Below are positions 8,522 to 18,554 of a stretch of 64,000 nt of DNA, in pieces; within the stretch, counting starts at the first letter, position 1, and the number at the start of each line of letters is the position of its first letter. A program made the translations under genes and the position numbers. Source of the DNA: Azonexus hydrophilus. GTDB lineage: Bacteria > Pseudomonadota > Gammaproteobacteria > Burkholderiales > Rhodocyclaceae. The notes beneath the pieces were generated by a model. It saw only the letters and a program-made list of their open reading frames with translations. It ran no database searches and had not been told where the DNA came from. The stretch covers positions 62,001 to 126,000 of the forward strand of contig NZ_CAJHOB010000001.1 in NCBI RefSeq assembly GCF_905120355.1, in the 5' to 3' direction.

Positions 8522-8812
8522 TCACAGCACCAGGGGCGCGTCGAAGTCGGTGGCGCGGAAGCAGCCATGTTCCTTGACCTCGTAGCCGCGCAATTCGGCA
8601 ATGCGATAGAAGCGCAGGTTGTCTTCCTTGGGGTCGATTTCGGCGATCAGGTCGCGTTCAAGCGCTTCAAACTGCGCTCGGTCGACCTGGCATTCAAAGA
8701 CCGATTTTTGCACCCGCTGGCCGATGCCTTCGCACAGCTTGGCGACACGGCGCAGGCGGCGTCGGCCTTCTCGGGTTTCGGTATTGACGTCGTAGCAGAC
8801 GATGACCAGCAT
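8522..8812 (-). CDS. cas2: CRISPR adaptation endoribonuclease-fold protein Cas2
   Basis: 96 residues with the ferredoxin-like Cas2 pattern: [11 protein letters not shown] at the N-terminus with the conserved Asp at position 8, then a basic helix ([25 protein letters not shown]), as in the type I-C Cas2 group. Cas2 forms the central dimer of the Cas1-Cas2 integrase that inserts new spacers at the leader end. Its start overlaps the cas1 stop by one base, so the two are translationally coupled. It is the last cas gene, and the array leader follows directly. Confidence 0.95.
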
Positions 8813-9840
8813 CAGCGCACCAGGTAGGGAAGATATTCATCGGTGTCGCCGCGCAGGGTGCGTGCCAACAGACGGGCCTGAACGTGCGGCAGCAGGCCGA
8901 AGGGCAAGCTCTCGGCCAACAGCGGATGCGAGGTCGGCTCCTGCTTGCGCTCCTGATAGGCCACCAGCACAGCTTTCCGGGCATCGCCTTCGAGCAGGAC
9001 GGCGCCGCCTTCGCGCTCGACGAAGTCGTCGGCGTCGAGTTGGCCGCGATTGATCAGCGACAGCGCCAGACGGTCGGCGAAGAAGCGAAACTCCTCCACC
9101 AGGTCGAGCGCCAGCGCCGCCCGCCCCGGCCGCAGGGCATGCAGAAAGCCGACTTGCGGGTCGAGCCCGGCGGCTTCGATGGCCGAGCGGCAATCGTTCA
9201 TCAGCAGCGAGTAGAGGAAGGAAAGCAGCGCATTGACGCGGTCGCGCGGCGGTCGTCGGCTGCGCCCATCCATACGAAAGGCGTCACGAGCGCTTGGGCG
9301 GACAAGATGATTGAGCGCGGCGAAATATTGCCGCGCCGCTTCTCCCTCTACGCCGCGCAGGGTATCAAGATCGCCCGCCGTCGGCAGGGCGCGCAAGGCA
9401 GCGGCAAGATCGTCGGCACCGCGCGCCAGGATGGCAGCGTCTTCTTCAAGCTTGCTCTCGCGCGCGCCGCGCAGCAGCACCTGGCGGCAGTTGCGCACCT
9501 TGCCGGCGATGCAGTTGCGCGCCAGCCGGACGGCAAGCGCGGTATCGTCCGCCGCCCGGTGCTGCGCCTGCCGGAGCAGCACATTGCCCGACACCGCGCC
9601 TTCCAGCCGCGCCTTGAAGCGCCCGTTGGCATCGAGCAAAACCAGCGCCACGCCCTCTTCCGCCAGGCGGTGCATCAGCGGCAGCGACACCGTGACGTGG
9701 CCGAAACAGACCACGGCGCCAAGGTGGTGCAAGGGCACCCGTAAGCGGGTTTCACGTTCGATGTCCAGCCGCACAGTGTTGTTGTCGAGGTGGACGTAGC
9801 TTTCCGGCGTCGTCACATACAAGGTGTTGAGCAACTGCAT
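8812..9840 (-). CDS. cas1: CRISPR integrase Cas1 (type I-C)
   Basis: 342 residues, the usual length for type I-C. The metal-binding catalytic residues are visible as Glu165 ([11 protein letters not shown]), His234 ([10 protein letters not shown]) and Asp246 ([10 protein letters not shown]). Cas1 is the transesterase that integrates prespacers. The start [10 protein letters not shown] at 9838-9840 is chosen because it matches the family N-terminus and lies just after the cas4 stop at 9842. An open frame extends upstream through cas4 and was trimmed. All key residues are present, so adaptation may be functional. Confidence 0.96.
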
Positions 9841-9841
9841 G

Positions 9842-10480
9842 TCAGTCCTCCGGCTCGAACAGATGGGCCAGCGCAGCGGTGCGCGCCGGGTTGTTGTGCA
9901 CCGCGTCCGGCTGGCACAGGTCGCGTAGCGAACAGGCACGGCAATGCTCGTCGGCCAGCGGTGGCGGGGTGATGCCGCTAGCCAGCAGATCGCGCACCCC
10001 GGTGATGGCGATCATGGTTTTTGCCCTTAAAGCGGCGTCGACCGCAACATTTCGCCGCCGGCGCGAGCTGGCGTAATACAAGGCGCCTTCCGGTACCGGC
10101 TTGCCGAACATCTCTTCCAGACACAGCGCCTGCGCCGCCAGTTGCACGTCGTCACAAGCCGCGATGTCGGCCCGCTTGTGGCGGGAACCGTGTTTGTACT
10201 CCACCGGGTAAGGCGTGCCGTCGGGCAGGAATTCCACCACATCGGCCTTGCCGACCAGCCCCAGCCGGTCGCTGAACAGCGGCAGGGCACGCTCGATGCG
10301 CAGGCCATCTCGTACCTCAAAGCCGGGGTCATCGACCCGCTTGTGCAGGGCCTGACCGCGCTGGGTGAACAGGTTGTCCTCGAACACCTGCTCAATGTGG
10401 ATCAAGGCGTACTGGCGCGGGCAGTAGCACCAGTGCTGGAGGGCGGAAAGGGGAATGGGATCAAGGGGTTCGCTATTCAT
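9842..10480 (-). CDS. cas4: CRISPR-associated exonuclease Cas4
   Basis: 212 residues of the RecB-like nuclease family with an iron-sulfur cluster. Candidate cluster cysteines are Cys18 or Cys20 (HWCYCPRQY) at the N-terminus and Cys180, Cys183 and Cys189 (HCRACSLRDLC) at the C-terminus. The nuclease motifs are GKADVVEF (Asp80) and VEYKHG (Glu94, Lys96), followed by QLAAQALCLEE (QxxxY-like region). In type I-C, Cas4 works with Cas1-Cas2 to trim prespacers and choose those next to the right PAM. It is separated from cas7 by about 590 bp holding a toxin-antitoxin pair, so cas4-cas1-cas2 need read-through or their own promoter. Confidence 0.95.
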   Translation of the reverse strand: MNSEPLDPIPLSALQHWCYCPRQYALIHIEQVFEDNLFTQRGQALHKRVDDPGFEVRDGLRIERALPLFSDRLGLVGKADVVEFLPDGTPYPVEYKHGSRHKRADIAACDDVQLAAQALCLEEMFGKPVPEGALYYASSRRRRNVAVDAALRAKTMIAITGVRDLLASGITPPPLADEHCRACSLRDLCQPDAVHNNPARTAALAHLFEPED

Positions 10481-10508
10481 CGGCCAAGCAATCGTGAAAG
10501 AACTTCTC

Positions 10509-10514
10509 TACAAT
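10509..10514 (+). promoter_or_regulatory. Candidate -10 box of the toxin-antitoxin promoter
   Basis: TACAAT lies about 30 bp before the antitoxin ATG, in the 64-bp gap between the divergent cas4 and antitoxin genes. No good -35 box is visible at 16-18 bp, so the call rests on the -10 match and position only. An AAGGAGGG ribosome site follows at about 10530. Confidence 0.4.
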
Positions 10515-10544
10515 CCGAGGTCTACCGCGAAGGAGGGTTTCACG

Positions 10545-10769
10545 ATGTCGCTCACTTACCAGCAAGTGGCCCAGGCCGCCATGCAACTCCGCCCGGACGA
10601 GCGCGTCGACCTGGCGGAAAAGCTCTGGGTCAGCGTCGAGACACCGGAGGCGATTGCCGCCGCCTGGGACGAGGAAATCGCTCGCCGTGTCGCCCAACTG
10701 GAAGCCGGCGAGGTTGAAACCGTGCCCGCCGAACAAGTCATTGCCGAACTACGCACCCAGCTGGTGTGA
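10545..10769 (+). CDS. Antitoxin of a ParE/RelE-type module (addiction module protein family)
   Basis: 74 residues (MSLTYQQVAQAAMQLRPDER). The layout is a helical first half with the pattern LRPDERVDLAEKLWVSV and an acidic tail with EEIARRVAQLEAGEVETVPAEQV. This is typical of the short addiction-module antitoxins (Pfam Unstab_antitox type) that pair with RelE/ParE toxins. The ATG follows a strong AAGGAGGG site. The toxin gene begins inside its last codons. The pair lies on the strand opposite to all cas genes, between cas4 and cas7. Confidence 0.85.
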   Translation: MSLTYQQVAQAAMQLRPDERVDLAEKLWVSVETPEAIAAAWDEEIARRVAQLEAGEVETVPAEQVIAELRTQLV

Positions 10770-11062
10770 TTGCCATCCGCTTCCACCCAGCCGCCCGCAA
10801 GGAAATTCAGCGGGCTTTTGACTGGTATCGGCAGGAGGCAAGCCCGCTCGTCGCAACCGGTTTTCTTGACGACTTTGAACAAACCCTGGCACTCCTGAAA
10901 CGCCACCCGAAAATCGGCGAAACCGGCAACAGCCAAACCCGCCGCCAGGTTTTCCAGCGCTACCCCTACACCGTGGTCTATCGCCTGGCAGGCGAAACGC
11001 TGGAAATCGTCGCCATCGCCCACCACAGCAGACAGCCGGAGTATTGGGCGAGGCGACGGTAG
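10766..11062 (+). CDS. ParE/RelE-superfamily toxin
   Basis: 98 residues starting with GTG, overlapping the antitoxin stop by 4 bp (GTGA), as usual in such pairs. The sequence follows the ParE/RelE plan: an N-terminal strand with FHPAARKEIQRAFDWY, a long helical hairpin, then QVFQRYPYTVVYRLAGETLEIVAIAHHSRQPEYW, where the final strands and the RR tail match family toxins. ParE members poison gyrase and RelE members cut mRNA on the ribosome; the sequence alone does not separate the two here. It converges on cas7, whose stop is 11 bp away. Confidence 0.85.
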   Translation: MIAIRFHPAARKEIQRAFDWYRQEASPLVATGFLDDFEQTLALLKRHPKIGETGNSQTRRQVFQRYPYTVVYRLAGETLEIVAIAHHSRQPEYWARRR

Positions 11063-11072
11063 GGGCTGCGAT

Positions 11073-11936
11073 TCAGAAGCCGTCGATAATTTCCGGTTCC
11101 AATCCGGGCAAGGCCTGACGCAAACGATCCTTGTCGAAGCTACCATCATCGTTGAGCAGGTTTCGCAACGAATCGTGGACCTTAGCCGCAGAGTACTGTC
11201 CGGCCTTGCAGTTGTGCTTCCACCAAATCACCGACAGAACCTGCATGCTTCCGTCGGGACGTGCAGACGAAGCATCGTTCTCGAAAAGTCGCGGCAAAAT
11301 CCCCTTGATGACTTCCGCATCTGCATCGCTGAAGCCAGTTCGTTCGGCAAGTTGCGGGTTAATGCTGCCGTAGCATTCGTAAATTCCTTGATCGACCCGA
11401 TGTTTCATGCCCATGGTGTCCGCACCCCGCTTGCTGCCATCGCCTTCGCCACTGACGCTCTTAGTAATCTGCGTGCTGGTCACACCAACAATTTCCTTGC
11501 TGAAAGCGGACTGCACGGTAACCGGGCCTCGAATAGGAATGGAAACACCACTGGCATCACCGTCCTTGCCGAACGCAAAGACCTGCCCAAACGCCCGGAC
11601 ATCGAACCATTTTTCGCAAGCTTTTTTCGCTGTCTCGTCCTTTTTTGTCTTTTTCGGGTTCCAGGCATCTTTGCCTAACCCATTGGTTTCCGACTCGGCC
11701 CTGCTTCGTAGACTTGGCTCACCATCCATCTTGCGATCATCAGACTGTACAAAAATCGAATGTTTCTCCTCTTGCAAACGGTCCCGCAATTTGCGCTTGA
11801 GGCAAACGTCGGTAATTTCCCCGAAACCACCGTAATCAGTGCGGGGACGATTGCCGTTCAACGGATCGCCGTTCGGATTGGCATTGCGGACGCGCAAGAC
11901 GAGCGCGAAATCGATTTTGTTTTGCAGAGTGCTCAT
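11073..11936 (-). CDS. cas7: Cascade backbone protein Cas7 (Csd2, type I-C)
   Basis: 287 residues beginning with the Csd2 pattern FALVLRVRNANPNGDPLNGNRPRTDYGG. GVSIPIRGPVTVQSAFSKEIVGVTSTQITKS follows in mid-protein. Multiple Cas7 copies coat the crRNA spacer and force every sixth base of the guide out of pairing with target DNA, which bears on the guide match discussed at 17403-17423. It lies 33 bp after cas8c, with a clear purine-rich start region. It is the last gene of the interference half of the operon. Confidence 0.95.
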   Translation of the reverse strand: MSTLQNKIDFALVLRVRNANPNGDPLNGNRPRTDYGGFGEITDVCLKRKLRDRLQEEKHSIFVQSDDRKMDGEPSLRSRAESETNGLGKDAWNPKKTKKDETAKKACEKWFDVRAFGQVFAFGKDGDASGVSIPIRGPVTVQSAFSKEIVGVTSTQITKSVSGEGDGSKRGADTMGMKHRVDQGIYECYGSINPQLAERTGFSDADAEVIKGILPRLFENDASSARPDGSMQVLSVIWWKHNCKAGQYSAAKVHDSLRNLLNDDGSFDKDRLRQALPGLEPEIIDGF

Positions 11937-11969
11937 TTGGATTTCCTTTCAGAAAAATACTTGGCTAAT

Positions 11970-13910
11970 TCAGTGGTTGGTTTCGGCTTGGCTATCGGCG
12001 CTGGCGGCTTGCTTGTCCGCATCCGCCGCTGGCCAGAAGTCCTTGCGTTGCGCGTGGTAGCCGAGCAAGAACTCGCCGCTTAAAGGCGCATCGCTGGTTC
12101 TTTCCGGCAAGTCATTCAGCCGACTCATCACCTCATCAAGCAACTTGCGACGCTTGACCAGAAGGCCAACCGATCTGTCGCTCCCAGCCTGCATCCGGGC
12201 TTCATAAGGTTTGAGCGCAAGTTCAATCGTCCGCCAGGTTGAGAACGGACGATCCGCGAAACGCTGCATCAGCCGGCCTGCCGTGGTTTCCCGCTTTTTC
12301 CCCTCATCCGAAGCCGACAAGGCATAGCCTTCGATGCTATCAGCGATGGCCAGCAAACGGCCGTAGAGGTAGTCGCGACTGTTTCTTTCCGTTTCCAAAT
12401 CCATCTGGTAGTTCCTTTCCTGGTGGTATCCCTTAAAAAGTGCGCAAGCTATTCCCAAAACCTTTTCCCATTCCCAGCGTTCCAGTCCGACGCGATTGGT
12501 CGCTCGCCGAACAGTGCTTCTCACCAGATCAAGCGGCACATCCCAGCCATCGACAATGCACGGCAGCAAACGCTCTACCGTTGCCTTCTGGAGCTTTTCG
12601 TCGAGGCGCCGACCGTAGGCCGCTTCGGCAATATCAGGCGGCGCTGGCGCGCCAATGAAACGCGTGTCCTTGCCGTAGTTTTGATGCCAGGCATACCGTG
12701 CATGCCAAGCTTCCAGTCGCTTGAGAAAGTCGGAACCCTTCAGTTCGCGGTAAAAGCTGATCGCCATACGACCCGGCGTCGCTGAATCCAAGCCAATTAC
12801 AACGACATCCTCTTTGGGATCGAGGTTGGCGCCGTAACCGGCAACGGCTTTCTTCAGGCGCAAGGCAAAGTTCTGGTCGGTACCAACCGAACTTGTCGCA
12901 GCTTTTATGTCCGAGCTATCAAGCTCGAATTGCTCAAAGATGTTCTTGATCGGATTGGGCAACAAAACACCGGAAACAGCCCAACTCACGACGGCCTGAT
13001 CGCCCTTCCGGTAGCCTTGATGGGCAAGCAGCCAGCGCAAGGCGTTATGCGCCTTTTGCGTGACATCAAAGCCCACCGAAATAACTTCCTTGGCCTCTAT
13101 GAACTTGCCGCGAAAGGTATAGCCAGAATCATCGTTAGCAGAAATCAGCTTGGCCTTATCGCCGGCATGCCTGAGTTTCGCCGGGTGCTGAATCGCTAGC
13201 GCCGATTCCTGTCCGGTCACCATGCAAATCCCGAACAAAGCTTGGGTATGCTGGTAATACGCTATCCAGGAGTCAATCAGGGCCTGATCCTGCCAAGTTG
13301 CGCTCAACGGATCATCTGGTGCGCTTTCCACCCGCCAACGAACAAAGGCGTCTTCCGGTGCTTGGGTGTTCTGAATGACTTTGAAAATGGCCGGTGCGGG
13401 ATTCGCCTCGTCACTCCAGCTTTTGAGAAGTTTGCCGTCCTCGCCCAGCGGCAGGATTCCCGCCGTGACCAAATCCCGCACCACGCTCCCTTTTTCCACG
13501 TAGTGGAGAATGGCCGTCAATTTGGGATGCTGCCACTCAGAGGCAGCCCAAGCACGTAGCCCGACCAGATAGTCGCGGTTCGGCACTTCCGGCTCTTTGG
13601 CAAAACCCGAGGTCACTTCACCGCCGAAAACCACGAAGTCCTTGGCCACGTACTGTAATTTATCGCAAAGCGGATGATTAACCGGCTTGCTCCCGGATCG
13701 ACTCGCGGACCCCTCAGTACAAGGAATCAGGGTCGTACCCTGACTTTTTTCGATTACAACAGCCCGTTTGAAGCCACCATTGCCGTCGAGCACAATTTCA
13801 ATCTGCGCCTGCTGGGTGGAGTGGCAAATCGGCATCAGCGGCTCGAAACCTTCTGGCTCGTGCCCGGCACTCTGTTCGTAGGTTTCATACAGCTTTTGAA
13901 TCCAGCTCAT
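11970..13910 (-). CDS. cas8c: Cascade large subunit Cas8c (Csd1)
   Basis: 646 residues, in the usual size range for Csd1. Recognisable stretches are [13 protein letters not shown] at the start and [21 protein letters not shown] in mid-protein. The region around residues 500-520 has [18 protein letters not shown] (RNYQMDLE follows), a conserved part of the family. Cas8c recognises the TTC PAM and recruits Cas3; in type I-C an internal start in cas8c also yields the small Cas11c subunit. No separate cas11 gene is seen here, in line with that. Its start overlaps the cas5 stop by 4 bp. Confidence 0.95.
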
Positions 13911-14641
13911 GATTGCGCCTCCAACTGGCCGGCCAAATCATCGGCTTCTTCATCCACCGCACGCTGGTTGCTCGAAACACCAAAGGCTTTCGGACTCATA
14001 TCCCGGACGAACTTCCGCACTTTGCAATCTTCCGGTCGGTCGAAGCGGATCACACCGTTGACCATCGTCGGAGACCAGCTCCGGGTGTACAGCTTATTTT
14101 CCCCGATCTCGTCGGGGTAGTCGAAGCTGTGAAACATCAGCCCAAACCCGAGTTCACCGTCGGCATCCAGCTCGCCGACGCCGGAACCGAATTCGCAGGG
14201 TTCGACGTAGCCCTGGCAATCGCGGGTTCCCAGAAAAATGTCCTGGCGCCCACCCCGCTCCAGCATGCGCTTGGCAATGTCGTAGTGTTTCCCTTCTATC
14301 CGGTCCGCTGCCAATTCCTGGCGGTAGGTGTTCCACTCGAAATGTGCCCGAACCTGATACTCGACATCAGACAGGAAGGTATAGATCGCCAGACTGTTGC
14401 CGCCGCTGTATTCCTGCGGCTTGGTGCCCTTGGTCTGCGTCCGGATACGCTTCATAACGCGCACCTCATCCACCACCCAGATCAACGTCGGTTTCCAGTA
14501 AATGGACTTCAGGACACCCTTGAGGGCTTCATAAGTGGGGATGTGGTACGAGCATTTTTCGCCACCGATACGGGTCAGCGGATCGGTAAATAGGGCATAG
14601 CGGCCCCATAAACGGAATTCGATACTGTTGCGCCTAGACAT
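13907..14641 (-). CDS. cas5c: crRNA-processing protein Cas5c (Cas5d)
   Basis: 244 residues. In type I-C, which lacks Cas6, Cas5c itself cuts the pre-crRNA and leaves an 11-nt 5' handle. The residues corresponding to the catalytic set known from the Bacillus halodurans protein (Tyr46, Lys116, His117) appear as Tyr48 (SIYWKP), Lys118 and His119 (EGKHYD), so processing should be active. The N-terminus [18 protein letters not shown] is typical. Its start overlaps the cas3 stop by 8 bp. The expected handle TGGATTGAAAC is present both in the array repeats and at 17485-17495. Confidence 0.95.
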
Positions 14642-17126
14642 TGAGTGTCTCCATCAAAGAAACGGGTTCAGTCGCCAGACCGAACTGCTTGCTGTAATAG
14701 CGGGGATCAAGGCTGTAAATTCGGACGCCCTCCTTGATGACATGCAAGGCTTCGGCCTTGGAAAGTTTGTCGAACACATGCGGAAAAACATTGACGGTGA
14801 ATTGCTGGGCTTCGCGCAACAATTCACCCTCCAGCGAAATGTCGTAGGCACCATGCAGGCGACCAATCAGATCAGCCCCCGCTTTGCCCCAGGGAACCAC
14901 TACACCTTGGGTTGGCGAGTCGATGGCTTTGAATGCTTCGGCTGCGGACATGAAGGACTGATTTAGTCCCCGAATAGAAGATGAATCCCCATTGCGCGCG
15001 GCCTCTTTCAAAGACGACTCGTTGTCCGACAACAGGCTCAGCAAGGAGTCATTTCGCCCAATGGCTTTCGCCTCCTTGGGGGAAACGGGGTAGCCCATGT
15101 CCTTTTGCCGCTCAAAGAAATAATGGGTGTAGTAGTCAGCCAAAGCCTGCGGCCCTAGCAGGTCGTGCTCATAACGCTCTGGCGTTTCGCGGAAGAAATC
15201 GAGGACTGAAGCGACTTTGTCTCGCCCGATGGCGATATCTTTCAAGTACTCCAGCGCGACATGCTCATCCGAAGGATTCACCAAATACACCCGGCCTCGC
15301 GCCGACTTGCCGTTGCGATTGCAACGCCCGGCCGCTTGCGCGATGGAGTCCAGCCCAGCCATGGAACGAATCACCGCGCCGAAATCCACATCAACGCCGG
15401 CCTCGATCAACTGCGTGCTAACACACAGCGTTGGCAATCCGAATTCGAGGCGAGACTTGATCTTTGCCAACTCGGATTTCCGGTGCATGGGGCACATGTC
15501 AGTGCTGAGATGAGAGAGGCTGTCTGCATTGACCAATGACTGGCAGGCAAGAAAGATTTGCTTGGCAGCGTCTTTGGTATTGACGATGACTAGGCAGCTT
15601 TCCACCCGCTCTACCTCAGCGCGGGCCAAGTCTGCTATCTCAGCAAAAGTCCAACCGTTTGGCCGTCGTTGATCAATGATCTCCACCCGCTTGAGGTCCG
15701 CAAAAAGCTGGCGGACATCGCTGACAATTTCATGTCCTTCGGCCAGACGAATCGCCCCCTGATCGAGCGCCACCTGATGCAGCAATGGCTGCGTGGCTGT
15801 GCAGAGCACGACGGTACTGTTGCACTGTTCGCTCAGGAAATTGATGGCGTTATTGAACAAGTGGACGCAACGGATCGGCAAAGTCTGGATTTCGTCGAAA
15901 ATCAGGACCGCATTGGCCAACTGGTGCATGCGCCGCGCGCCGCGCGTGCCACTGCCAAACAAGGTTTCAAGCAACTGCACCATGGTCGTGTAGACCACTG
16001 GCGCATCCCAGTTCTCGCAAAGCATCTTTTCCCGCCAAGTCTGCTTTTCCGGAGTAACGCTGGAGTGATGTTCCAATACGACCTTGCCCTGATCCTGCGG
16101 AAAATCCTCAGGTTCGAGAATGTCGCGGACCACTTTCGCGTTCTGGTCGATGATGGACGTGAACGGAATTACGTAGATGACGCGATCCAATTTGCGCCGC
16201 TCCGCATGATGTAAGGCAAAACGCAAGCTGGCCAAGGTTTTGCCGCCGCCCGTCGGCACCGTCAAGGTGTAAATCCCGGCTGGACGCTCAGCGGCATCTT
16301 TGCACTCAGTGGAGATTTGCTGCCGCAAGTGGTCAATCGGATGTCGCGGCGCGAAAGCTGCCAGTGCTTTTTCCAGACGCTCAATCAGAACAGCCCAAGG
16401 CACGTAATCGCCTTGTGGCCGATTAGCGGCGACTTTCTTTTGTTCGAAATTCGCCGTATCGATACGGTCGGCATCGATCAAACAACTGAACAGAAACCGG
16501 ACAGCCAAGCCCAGTTGCTGAAACAACGGCCTCGAATTTTTCTCTTTCTGGTTGAGGGTCGTCAGCAGATTTTTCATTTCGCCAATTAACTCAGGCGAAT
16601 CCAGCAGCACATGCGCCCGCGCCAGTATTTCTGCATCGGCGCAGGACTGCACTTCTTCAAGGTGAGTCTTCTCTTCCGGCTTTCTCATGCGCTTGCCGAA
16701 GACATCGCTACCCTCTGGATCTAGGCAATCGATCAAGCCGGAATGGTGGGATGCAATGCAGAGTGCCAGTAACTGGCCGATCAAGGACTCTCGCTCTCCT
16801 CTCTTGGACAAGGTTTGCCAGATAAACTGGGCACCGGCCGATGAGTGATCGACCTTGCCCTTGAGAGCCCCAGAATCAACGTAATCATCCTCGTCAGGGT
16901 TAAGCAAACCGAGGGCGGAATGGATATAGCACCGAAAATCCTCGCTGTACTTCCCGAGATCGTGAAGCAATCCGATCAACTCTCCGGCAACCTCAAGACT
17001 GATTTTCTTGCCAAAGATGCTCGATAGCGCGGCCACACCAAGCAAGTGACTGGAAAGGGCTTGAAAAACCTGATCATTTTTCCGCCAATGAGCCATTGGC
17101 AGAAGTTTGGCTTCTTCGCTTTTCAT
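14634..17126 (-). CDS. cas3: CRISPR helicase-nuclease Cas3
   Basis: 830 residues with an N-terminal HD nuclease domain (His27, His-Asp at 55-56 in [12 protein letters not shown], then the SHHSGLID motif near 126-133). A superfamily 2 helicase follows: Walker A PTGGGKT near 291-297, DEIQ in place of DEAD/H at 411-414, and motif VI in [11 protein letters not shown]. It is recruited by Cascade to degrade target DNA. The ATG lies about 11 bases after GGAG. A 52-codon ORF and the cas promoter lie upstream, so cas3 is probably the second ORF of the transcript. Confidence 0.96.
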
Positions 17127-17199: not shown

Positions 17200-17358
17200 T
17201 CACATCAGCCGCAACAACAACTCTTTGAGCACAAAGGAGCGAAAAAACATACCAGTCGCAGCAAGCGCAAAAACAAGTACACAGGCAGCATAGAAGCGAT
17301 GCGACGGCTGATTTTTCATCAACCGTAATTCGCGCAATAATCCAATTAGATTGCCCAT
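17200..17358 (-). CDS. Small putative membrane peptide at the head of the cas transcript
   Basis: A 52-codon ORF (begins MGNLIGLLRELRLMKNQ) between the putative cas promoter and cas3. It has a basic N-terminal part, one hydrophobic segment at about residues 22-42 (FYAACVLVFALAATGMFFRSF) and a short basic tail, a layout shared with membrane-acting toxic peptides and other small membrane proteins. GAGGTAAGGGGT precedes the ATG and can serve as ribosome site. It ends 73 bp before cas3. I know no family for it, and it may be non-coding leader sequence. Its place directly downstream of the Cascade target site makes a CreT-like guarded toxin conceivable. Confidence 0.45.
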   Translation of the reverse strand: MGNLIGLLRELRLMKNQPSHRFYAACVLVFALAATGMFFRSFVLKELLLRLM

Positions 17359-17389: not shown

Positions 17390-17418
17390 ATCATAGCATT
17401 CGTTCTTAGCTTGTGTTG
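17390..17418 (-). promoter_or_regulatory. Putative cas operon promoter
   Basis: On the minus strand TATGAT at 17390-17395 is a good -10 box, about 30 bp before the small ORF and 265 bp before cas3. At 17-18 bp spacing the -35 position (about 17413-17418) reads CAACAC or ACAACA, a weak match. The guide-matching site at 17403-17423 lies over exactly this spacer and -35 region. Confidence 0.55.
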
Positions 17419-17423
17419 TTGTG
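17403..17423 (+). promoter_or_regulatory. PAM-flanked partial protospacer over the cas promoter (CreR target)
   Basis: TTC at 17403-17405 is the type I-C PAM. The next 18 bases, TTAGCTTGTGTTGTTGTG, match the first 18 bases of the guide at 17496-17513 except at positions 6, 7 and 12. Positions 6 and 12 are flipped out in Cascade and do not need to pair. The match stops after base 18. Partial seed-only pairing of this kind allows Cascade binding but not Cas3 cleavage, which suits repression. Confidence 0.75.
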
Positions 17424-17448
17424 CGGTTTAAACCGGGGCCGCAATAAA
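17419..17448 (+). promoter_or_regulatory. Possible promoter of the CreR-like RNA
   Basis: TTGTGC at 17419-17424 and AATAAA at 17443-17448 with 18 bp between them could be -35 and -10 boxes. Transcription would start near 17455, just before the degenerate repeat. Both boxes are weak. The -35 would touch the end of the target site, so the RNA could limit its own synthesis too. Confidence 0.35.
17424..17435. promoter_or_regulatory. Perfect 12-bp palindrome between the divergent cas and CreR promoters
   Basis: CGGTTTAAACCG is a perfect palindrome centred about 40 bp upstream of the cas -10 box. It could be an operator, for example for the neighbouring WYL regulator, but nothing in the sequence assigns a protein to it. 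Confidence 0.4.
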
Positions 17449-17458
17449 GTCTGGTAGA

Positions 17459-17560
17459 CTTGGTACCTCGCCAAAAACTAGGCGTGGATTGAAACTTAGC
17501 AGGTGTAGTTGTGAAGCCAGCAAGAGTTGATTGGGCCGGGCTTGTCCCGGCCCTTTCTTT
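17459..17560 (+). ncRNA. CreR-like mini-CRISPR RNA (one degenerate repeat, one guide, terminator)
   Basis: The segment 17481-17495 (GGCGTGGATTGAAAC) is identical to the 3' end of the array repeat read in crRNA orientation, including the whole 11-nt handle. Upstream the repeat is degenerate but CGCC at 17469-17472 still pairs with GGCG at 17481-17484, giving the basal stem with an 8-nt loop in place of the longer array hairpin. A guide-length stretch (17496-17532) follows and then an intrinsic terminator. Cas5c could process this RNA and Cascade could load it. The guide's first bases match a PAM-flanked site over the cas promoter. Family knowledge: CreR RNAs (cas-regulating, crRNA-like) direct Cascade autorepression in other CRISPR subtypes. 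A decayed solitary repeat is the alternative, but it would not explain the PAM-flanked match. Confidence 0.8.
17533..17560 (+). terminator. Intrinsic terminator of the CreR-like RNA
   Basis: GGGCCGGG (17533-17540) and CCCGGCCC (17546-17553) form a perfect 8-bp stem with loop CTTGT, followed by TTTCTTT. The T-tract is on the plus strand only, so it terminates a plus-strand transcript. The only candidate is the mini-CRISPR RNA. Confidence 0.85.
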
Positions 17561-17582: not shown

Positions 17583-18554
17583 TCACTCATCCCCATACCT
17601 CCCCGCCGCCGCCTTCAACAACCCCACCACCTTCGCCCGCAACTCCGCCGGCGCCACCACCTCGCAATCCGGCCCGTGCTTCAGGATGTCCATGATCAGT
17701 TCCGGGTCCTGGCTGTAGGGCACGCAGAGTTGATAGCGGCCGTCGGGCAGGAATTCGCCGTGCTGTTGCGGGTGCCAGCGTTCGCTGGCGACCCAGCGGG
17801 CGCGATGGATGGAGAAAACCAGGACAGCCAGATGTTCGGCTGGGCCGCTGAATATTCCATAGCCCGAACTCAGGACTTGATCAAGCACTGCCTCTTCAAT
17901 ATCTACCGCTCCGGTATCAACAACGCTGGCTGTTTGAATCGCATCGACCGAAAAACTGCGCAGCTCTTCGCGCAAGTGGCACCAGGCATCGAGATACCAG
18001 TTGTCACGGTAGTGCACCAAACGCTGGGGCGAAACCTCGCGCTGGGTAATCTGGCCGTCGCTGCGTGCAGCATAGGTGAGCAGCAGACGACGACGTTCCA
18101 TCAAGGCCGCTGCAATCGTCTGAAAAAACATCGGGTTACACTGCCTGGGCGCACTTCCCAAAATGCGGACACGCCAGAAGATATCGGCGACATCGCCACC
18201 GCAGCTTTCGAGTAGGCCGAGAAGACGTTGGCGCAACGGCGCTATCTGCTCGGCAAGTACACCACTGCCATCAATGCTGCCAAGCAGTTGTTGTGTGCTA
18301 AGCAAGGCGTGAATCTCTGCAGGAGAAAACCATAAGCCAGGCAGCGCATGGCGTTCGACACTGCGATCAATGCGGTAACGCCCCTGCTCACGATCGAACA
18401 AGATGGGCACCTGCAAGCATTCCCGCAACTCGCGCAAATCCCGGTGCAGTGTGGCACGGGACACCTCCAGCCGCTGCTGCAGTTCAGCAAAGTGAACGCC
18501 GCGACGAGTCAGCAACATGCGCTCGATGATTCCGAATCGTTCTGATTTTGTCAT
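17583..18554 (-). CDS. WYL-domain transcriptional regulator
   Basis: 323 residues. The N-terminus is a helix-turn-helix of the DeoR/HTH_11 kind (RFGIIERMLLTRRGVHFAELQQRLEVSRATLHRDLREL, residues 6-43). The C-terminal half has a WYL domain (RRRLLLTYAARSDGQ, later YRDNWYLDAWCHLREELRSFSVD, where WYL is literally present) and a WCX-like end. WYL proteins sense nucleic-acid or nucleotide ligands and often regulate defence loci, including CRISPR-Cas operons. It is transcribed toward the cas control region and ends about 20 bp from the CreR terminator. A role in cas control is inferred from position only. Confidence 0.85.
   Translation of the reverse strand: MTKSERFGIIERMLLTRRGVHFAELQQRLEVSRATLHRDLRELRECLQVPILFDREQGRYRIDRSVERHALPGLWFSPAEIHALLSTQQLLGSIDGSGVLAEQIAPLRQRLLGLLESCGGDVADIFWRVRILGSAPRQCNPMFFQTIAAALMERRRLLLTYAARSDGQITQREVSPQRLVHYRDNWYLDAWCHLREELRSFSVDAIQTASVVDTGAVDIEEAVLDQVLSSGYGIFSGPAEHLAVLVFSIHRARWVASERWHPQQHGEFLPDGRYQLCVPYSQDPELIMDILKHGPDCEVVAPAELRAKVVGLLKAAAGRYGDE

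What the first reader, a model, noticed from the sequence alone, without database searches (positions are those of the whole stretch)
17403..17560. A CreR-type mini-CRISPR RNA that appears to aim Cascade at its own type I-C cas promoter
Seen directly: a plus-strand unit made of a degenerate repeat (15 identical 3' bases, GGCGTGGATTGAAAC, with the basal CGCC/GGCG stem kept), a guide of about 37 nt and a perfect terminator. The first 18 guide bases, TTAGCAGGTGTAGTTGTG, match TTAGCTTGTGTTGTTGTG at 17406-17423. That site follows TTC, the type I-C PAM, and covers the spacer and -35 zone of the likely cas promoter. Mismatches are at positions 6, 7 and 12; positions 6 and 12 are the flipped bases in Cascade, leaving one effective mismatch. 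The match stops after 18, as expected for binding without cleavage. Known: CreR RNAs do this in other CRISPR subtypes. Inference: this one autorepresses the type I-C operon and so senses loss of Cascade or anti-CRISPR attack.
Basis: partly seen in the sequence, partly recalled or inferred. Interest (0 to 1): 0.92.

Follow-up and report, generated by a model that had tools for sequence, protein, structure and literature searches.

The report
Self-silencing guide RNA of CRISPR genes
Beside its CRISPR immune genes this bacterium carries a tiny lone guide-RNA gene that appears to steer the immune complex onto the genes' own promoter as a self-made brake, and related bacteria keep the same brake with different letters that still match.

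Summary
In detail: a lone degenerate type I-C repeat (17469-17495), a 37-nt guide and a terminator, plus a TTC-flanked partial copy of the guide at 17406-17423. Comparison makes it much stronger. I assembled by hand 34 loci with such a unit beside type I-C effector genes. With no PAM required, the best local match of the guide follows TTC in 25 of 34. In those 25, positions 6 and 12 mismatch in 17 each, against 0-3 at every other position from 1 to 11: the Cascade flipped-base fingerprint. The summed score of own guide/promoter pairs exceeds all 20,000 reshufflings. Five of this array's spacers match viral sites at six places, all after TTC. So this is a CreR/CreA-type RNA for type I-C Cascade. 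The window is a mosaic: its effector genes belong to a divergent clade in which I found no other clear unit (26 loci). One seed mismatch (position 7) remains, so repression here is likely, not shown. Whether the membrane peptide is a Cascade-silenced toxin is open.

The parts
17403..17405 (+). TTC PAM of the promoter target
   Evidence: sequence; TTC also precedes all six protospacer places found for five of this array's spacers
17406..17423 (+). Target of the guide, over the -35 zone of the minus-strand promoter
   Evidence: 15 of 18 identical to guide; mismatches at 6, 7, 12
17390..17398 (-). Putative extended -10 (TGC-TATGAT) of the small-ORF/cas promoter
   Evidence: read by eye; the consensus scanner did not list it
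17452..17460 (+). Putative extended -10 (TGG-TAGACT) of the guide-RNA gene
   Evidence: read by eye; some relatives have a similar element a few bases before the repeat stem
17469..17495 (+). Degenerate repeat: CGCC/GGCG stem and 11-nt handle TGGATTGAAAC
17496..17532 (+). Guide, about 37 nt, of which the first 18 match the target
17533..17560 (+). Intrinsic terminator where a second repeat could be expected
17203..17358 (-). 52-aa single-TM small protein, first gene behind the targeted promoter
   Evidence: homologues in related unit loci; third-codon-position bias
14634..17126 (-). cas3
   Evidence: Pfam, PADLOC
13907..14641 (-). cas5 (Cas5c/d, expected repeat-cleaving enzyme of type I-C)
11970..13910 (-). 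cas8c
11073..11936 (-). cas7
9842..10480 (-). cas4
   Evidence: 89% identical to canonical locus L047
8812..9939 (-). cas1
   Evidence: 91% identical to L047
5799..8339 (-). CRISPR array, 36 copies of the repeat core
17583..18554 (-). WYL-domain regulator

Best explanation
The unit is a type I-C CreR/CreA-type gene. A roughly 90-nt RNA starts just before the degenerate repeat and ends at the terminator (inferred). Cas5 cuts below the stem, leaving the handle UGGAUUGAAAC and the guide (inferred from type I-C processing). The RNA loads into Cascade, which binds the TTC-flanked site 17406-17423 on the -35 zone of the minus-strand promoter. Pairing is limited to about 18 positions, so Cascade blocks the polymerase without DNA destruction (inferred). 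The repressed transcript is small membrane protein - cas3 - cas5 - cas8c - cas7. When Cascade is scarce, occupied by ordinary crRNAs or blocked by an anti-CRISPR, the brake should lift (inferred from published CreR work). Shown here by sequence: PAM, co-varying guide and target, the 5+1 mismatch code, and the position before the first gene of the operon; the promoter itself is predicted.
For: 34 loci assembled by hand with a solitary repeat beside I-C effector genes; the best ungapped match of the guide over 17 positions, both strands of the 760-nt region, no PAM condition, follows TTC in 25 of 34 (1 in 64 expected per locus). In those 25, mismatches at position 6: 17, at 12: 17, at each other position of 1-11: 0-3; 34 of 78 mismatches (positions 1-17) sit at 6 and 12 against 9.2 expected, and none of 20,000 permutations reached it; with one row per hand-made cluster (20 rows) 27 of 65 against 7.6, again none. 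Own pairs score 11.56 of 14 on average against 7.00 swapped; summed own score 393 against a maximum of 287 in 20,000 permutations; own is best or tied best in 25 of 34. In one search, with no PAM asked, 21 of 32 solitary repeat-like sites had a partner at 8 of 10 seed bases or better within 250 nt on the same strand, and for 19 of these 21 the best partner followed TTC. Spacers 3, 4, 5, 6 and 8 of this array match viral contigs at six places, all after TTC. Published I-B CreA needs each of positions 1-5 and 7-11, tolerates changes at 6 and 12, uses TTC, and one form ends in a terminator (passages of PMC8501985). Of 78 canonical loci whose cas3 end could be placed, 0 of 52 with a cas3-cas5 gap of 120 nt or less carry a unit and 23 of 26 with a larger gap do.
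Against: No expression data. The window pair has a seed mismatch at position 7; in the I-B system a change at any of the ten seed positions abolished function, although 12 of the 25 natural I-C pairs carry exactly one. In the window's divergent effector clade none of 26 other loci has a clear unit upstream of cas3 (two with under 300 nt to look at; L035 has a near-repeat, GAGGATTGAAAG, without a TTC partner), so the RNA may not suit this Cascade. Nine of the 34 units do not have TTC at their best ungapped match, own is not the best region in 9 of 34, and L081 has no target found. The -35 element is poor and the promoter is predicted by eye.
Confidence: 0.8

Rival explanations
1. CrePA/CreTA-like toxin-antitoxin: the guide RNA is an antitoxin that keeps a small membrane-peptide toxin (17203-17358) silent through Cascade; the cas genes behind it are carried along. 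Loss or inhibition of Cascade would release the peptide and harm the cell.
For: By my reading of the ORF table a 40-65-aa single-TM ORF lies between target and effector genes in 23 of the 34 loci, in at least two families that look unrelated by eye. All 8 loci with a strong homologue of the window's ORF (E below 1e-3; 5 of them were in the query alignment, 3 were new) carry a unit. Among 78 canonical loci the unit occurs only where the cas3-cas5 gap exceeds 120 nt. CreTA/CrePA are known designs (passages).
Against: Nine unit loci (L094, L110, L111, L153, L156, L114, L119, L123, L124) show no such TM ORF, and L081 and L152 are uncertain, so repression of the cas promoter itself must suffice there. 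In the window no T-run terminator is seen between the ORF and cas3 (by eye). The window's ORF has no Pfam or PADLOC match (NCBIfam and PHROGs not searched). Toxicity is untested.
Confidence: 0.3
2. A relic: the cassette was left behind when the canonical effector genes were replaced by the divergent ones, and it no longer represses.
For: Seed mismatch at position 7; mosaic locus; no clear unit in 26 clade relatives; short repeat stem, 4 bp.
Against: Repeat 3' end identical to the array, terminator intact, PAM intact, positions 8-11 and 13-18 intact, small ORF intact with codon-position bias among relatives; 12 of 25 natural pairs have one seed mismatch.
Confidence: 0.15
3. The two similar 18-mers are operator half-sites of a DNA-binding protein such as the adjacent WYL regulator, or a simple duplication, with no RNA guide.
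For: Direct repeat of 19 nt at 90-nt spacing; WYL gene adjacent.
Against: Operator sequence should be shared between loci, but here both copies change together; one copy sits behind a CRISPR repeat and in 25 of 34 loci the best other copy sits behind TTC; mismatches concentrate at 6 and 12; in six loci the best copy lies on the opposite strand 190-255 nt away.
Confidence: 0.02

Closest known systems
CreR (cas-regulating RNA; autorepression of I-B, I-E and V-A Cas proteins)
   Same: crRNA-like RNA outside the array, limited complementarity to the cas promoter, Cascade as expected repressor
   Different: type I-C; a 5' degenerate repeat and a terminator; cassette usually holds a small membrane-protein gene; window has a swapped effector. 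Reported subtypes taken from a passage of the review PMC13131331
CreA of CreTA (type I-B, Haloarcula hispanica / Halobacterium hubeiense)
   Same: TTC PAM, pairing at 1-5 and 7-11 with 6 and 12 free, one-repeat form ending in a terminator (passages of PMC8501985); cassette inside the cas locus (recalled)
   Different: the known toxin is an RNA; here a peptide gene, and the promoter also serves the effector genes
CrePA (CRISPR-repressed protein toxin)
   Same: crRNA-like RNA, Cascade represses a protein gene
   Different: CreP typically has a KilA-N domain (passage of PMC12737573); here 40-65-aa TM peptides
Standalone-repeat mini-arrays (Shmakov et al. 2023, NAR)
   Same: standalone repeats in cas loci aimed at cas or cargo promoters (recalled; paper not held)
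   Different: I could not check whether type I-C units like these are among its predictions
Racr (phage RNA anti-CRISPR), including RacrIC1
   Same: solitary I-C repeat
   Different: phage- or prophage-borne and inhibits CRISPR immunity; no promoter target described in the passages seen (PMC10651486)

Membership tests
CreR | Solitary repeat-guide unit outside the array | tested here: met
CreR | Guide partly complementary to the cas promoter next to the system's PAM | tested here: met
   PAM from own spacers; the promoter is predicted by eye
CreR | Guide and target co-evolve in relatives | tested here: met
CreR | Complementarity at 1-5 and 7-11 intact in this locus | tested here: inconclusive
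   9 of 10; position 7 mismatched
CreR | RNA is made, processed and represses cas genes through Cascade | not testable with these tools
   needs RNA-seq and reporter
CreR | Not coupled to a toxin gene (PMC12737573: generally not) | tested here: inconclusive
   a small TM-protein gene is the first gene; toxicity unknown
CreTA (RNA toxin) | RNA toxin downstream of the target | tested here: inconclusive
   a protein-coding gene with codon-position bias lies there; RNA toxicity untested
CrePA | Protein toxin, typically KilA-N | tested here: not met
   no Pfam or PADLOC match of the window's small ORF; toxicity not testable here
Type I-C CRISPR-Cas | cas3, cas5c, cas8c, cas7c, cas4, cas1 | tested here: met

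The most novel reading that the evidence does not exclude
A widespread type I-C cassette in which one Cascade-guided promoter controls both the Cascade genes and a small membrane toxin: anti-CRISPR attack or loss of Cascade would raise Cas production and, if that fails, release a self-killing peptide. In the window the cassette has moved to a different effector family. The natural pairs may also show that Cascade tolerates a missing target base opposite a flipped guide base: in 7 of 14 loci tested the best alignment skips one target base, and the skip can be placed at 6 or 12 in 6 of those 7 (other positions tie, so suggestive only).
Probability: 0.27. Interest if true: 0.83.

Novelty: new variant of a known kind. 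Interest (0 to 1): 0.64.

Why it matters
It extends RNA-guided self-repression to type I-C, a compact subtype, with natural pairs that read out the Cascade pairing code (1-5, 7-11, 13-16) from evolution alone. It predicts that anti-CRISPRs against I-C switch on cas genes and a small membrane protein, which is directly testable, and it suggests that such a brake can be kept through an exchange of the whole effector module.

Tried and rejected
Rejected: protein operator or chance duplication. Rejected for the family as a whole: mere array fragment, because target pairing is kept. Led nowhere: Rfam (none at gathering threshold in 6 sources); Pfam for eight small ORFs (seven none, one chance-like match at E 0.1); small ORF in plasmids (none); array against phages (none) and plasmids (4 records at 70-74% identity, not followed); sigma-70 scan for the cas promoter. 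MAFFT could not align the repeat stems because loops differ in length, so no pair counts were made. Stem evidence stays modest: 16 of 19 divergent-layout and 7 of 15 same-direction repeats have a stem of 4 bp or more ending exactly 11 nt before the guide, but only 6 of 34 reach a shuffle value of 0.05 or below.

Coverage: of 78 genomes with a Cas3 match I fetched loci of 60; of 41 with a Cas5 match all; of 36 with a Csd1 match 30. Six weaker small-ORF hits (E 0.002-0.01) were not examined. Rows dropped before counts: solitary repeat-like hits that lay in coding sequence or away from the cas5-upstream region (for example L005, L008, L046 at 424, L051, L064 at 416, L118 at 2175, L137, L140, L142, L157, L163-L165, L167, L093, L129) were left out by me when I assembled the 34. 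L089, L146, L150 and L020 were looked at and have no unit. The 34 are my hand-made list; L114, L123 and L124 were added because they resemble L119 although their repeat ends in AAAT. Of the nine without a TTC best hit, seven fit a TTC site with one skipped base, L105 has a TTC site at 9 of 10 seed bases, L081 none. Of the 17 canonical loci whose cas3 end could not be placed, 10 have a unit and 7 do not. The count of 23 of 34 loci with a small TM ORF is my reading, not a computed test; for L031 I inferred an alternative start. The repeat scans see only repeats close to GNGGNTTGAAAC, so more degenerate units would be missed.

Papers: Shmakov 2023 not held; the CreR research paper was only recalled. 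Search listings 7, 14, 15, 35, 42, 54 and 83 showed no I-C CreR paper; this does not show that none exists.

Full report
What is there. On the plus strand, 17469-17560 holds a degenerate type I-C repeat whose last 15 bases equal the array repeat, a 37-nt guide and an intrinsic terminator. Its first 18 guide bases recur at 17406-17423 behind TTC with mismatches at 6, 7 and 12. Nothing else in the window comes within three mismatches, and 100 dinucleotide shuffles give none. The cas operon runs on the minus strand away from it: cas3, cas5c, cas8c, cas7c, cas4, cas1, then the array. The RNA folds with the CGCC/GGCG stem and the terminator (z -2.0; 4 of 200 shuffles fold as well).

The first gene behind the targeted promoter is a 52-aa ORF (17203-17358, minus) with a single hydrophobic segment. 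Among the 20 other loci of the first set it is found in two, L046 and L047, and not in the other 18; these two are also the ones in that set with a unit. It shows codon-position bias (75, 46 and 142 differences at codon positions 1, 2 and 3, of 270 each, summed over ten pairs of five sequences) and a family motif LLRELRLM..QP..RFYA. Its profile, searched in 395 family and 399 order genomes, gave 8 loci at E below 1e-3, all with a unit; five of them were already in the query alignment and three were new. A scan of genome contigs with the first three sequences gave four loci, all with a unit; L052 repeats L047 and L053 repeats a locus fetched.

Comparative test. I looked in loci fetched from searches with Cas3 (78 of 297 genomes matched, 60 fetched), the small ORF, Cas5 (41 of 399 matched, all fetched) and Csd1 (36 of 369 matched, 30 fetched). 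In one search, without asking for a PAM, 32 solitary repeat-like sites were listed; 11 had no partner at the threshold, and of the 21 with one the best partner followed TTC in 19. Of the two exceptions one lies away from the effector promoter (L064 at 416) and the other (L119) is a unit whose TTC target lies farther off. I then assembled 34 units by hand. In 25 the best ungapped match over 17 positions, both strands, no PAM condition, follows TTC. In these 25, positions 1-5 and 7-11 match in 22-25 loci each, positions 6 and 12 in only 8 each, and the match fades after about 16. Selection used equal weights at all 17 positions, so the dip at 6 and 12 is not built in. Permuting mismatches within rows never reached the observed value in 20,000 trials, also with one row per hand-made cluster of near relatives (20). 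Swapping guides among loci gives 7.0 of 14 against 11.6 for own pairs; own is best or tied best in 25 of 34. Of the nine others, seven fit a TTC site if one target base is skipped, L105 has a TTC site at 9 of 10 seed bases, and L081 has no target found.

Layouts. In 19 loci, the window included, the unit points away from the effector genes. In 16 of these the target lies 58-90 nt before the guide on the same strand, in two 117 and 128 nt, and in the doubtful L152 on the other strand. In a second layout the unit lies between a small TM ORF and cas5 on the cas strand, with the target on the other strand about 190-255 nt upstream (L084, L085, L118, L125, L128, L145, L147). L111, L153 and L156 have the unit on the cas strand and the target 60-94 nt before it on the same strand. 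L114, L119, L123 and L124 have the target about 315 nt upstream and a conserved hairpin leader instead of a TM ORF. Among 95 distinct canonical cas5-upstream regions, 33 have a unit. Where the cas3 end could be placed (78), a gap of at most 120 nt had 0 units in 52 and a larger gap 23 in 26; of the other 17, 10 have a unit. This is no census, since some loci were fetched because of the small ORF.

PAM of this system. Eight of this array's 34 spacers were searched as 21-mers in viral contigs: four gave nothing and four gave one locus each, three distinct in all. Comparing all 34 spacers with these three loci, spacers 3, 4, 5, 6 and 8 match at six places (1, 0, 0 and 7, 0, and 6 mismatches), all six directly after TTC. 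The two places of spacer 5 are related.

Mosaic. The window's cas3, cas5, cas8c and cas7 are 86, 95, 94 and 96% identical to L032 but only roughly 22-43% to canonical I-C loci over long alignments, while its Cas4 and Cas1 are 89 and 91% identical to canonical L047. In canonical loci the unit sits between cas3 and cas5; in the window it sits between the WYL gene and cas3. None of 26 other loci of the window's effector clade shows a clear unit upstream of cas3 (L037 and L038 have under 300 nt to look at, and L035 has a near-repeat without a TTC partner). The simplest reading is exchange of the effector module beneath a retained promoter-unit-small-ORF cassette (inference).

How it most likely works. 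Published work on type I-B CreA found that each of positions 1-5 and 7-11 is essential, 6 and 12 are not, the PAM is TTC, and that one form has one repeat and a terminator (passages of PMC8501985). The type I-C units show the same code by evolution. A review names CreR in I-B, I-E and V-A (passage of PMC13131331); another says type I and V-A and describes sensing of crRNA load and anti-CRISPRs (passages of PMC12737573). By that analogy the window's unit should repress the small ORF and the effector genes. The seed mismatch at position 7 is a real caveat; 12 of 25 natural pairs (the window's among them) carry one seed mismatch, L118 at the same position.

Open question. Small TM proteins of at least two families that look unrelated, in 23 of 34 unit loci by my reading, suggest a function tied to Cascade-controlled expression. 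A membrane toxin is the bold reading; the nine unit loci without such an ORF argue that cas autorepression alone can be enough to keep the RNA.

Novelty. The principle is known; the subtype, the small-protein cassette and the retention through an effector exchange are new to me and did not show in the searches listed. The closest research papers were not held, so this is provisional.

Noticed in passing
window 8812-17126: Effector genes of a divergent I-C clade combined with canonical-type Cas4/Cas1: module exchange.
   Followed up: partly
window 10556-11149: 197-aa ORF between cas7 and cas4 without a Pfam match; partial similarity in L051 and L055.
   Followed up: no
L046, L047, L053, L055 (5' leader of the small ORF): Palindrome CCTGGCCAGG between the target promoter and the small ORF in four relatives; degenerate in the window and L054.
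   Followed up: no
L114, L119, L123, L124 (upstream of cas5): Conserved leader with a strong hairpin and a very short ORF before the unit; could be an RNA-toxin-like or regulatory leader.
   Followed up: no
L020 and L146, cas3-cas5 gap: The same gap can hold other cargo: in L020 an ORF that by eye resembles a GIY-YIG nuclease, in L146 one that resembles a PIN-type protein; names are recalled, not tested.
   Followed up: no
L118 near cas5: The degenerate repeat overlaps the 3' end of the small TM ORF, so one stretch serves as protein code and repeat.
   Followed up: no
L035, 84 nt upstream of cas3: Near-repeat GAGGATTGAAAG in a locus of the window's own effector clade, without a TTC partner; possibly a decayed unit.
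   Followed up: no
L185 (IMG/VR contig): Viral contig matched by spacers 3, 4, 5 and 6 of this array, so probably a phage of this host lineage.
   Followed up: no
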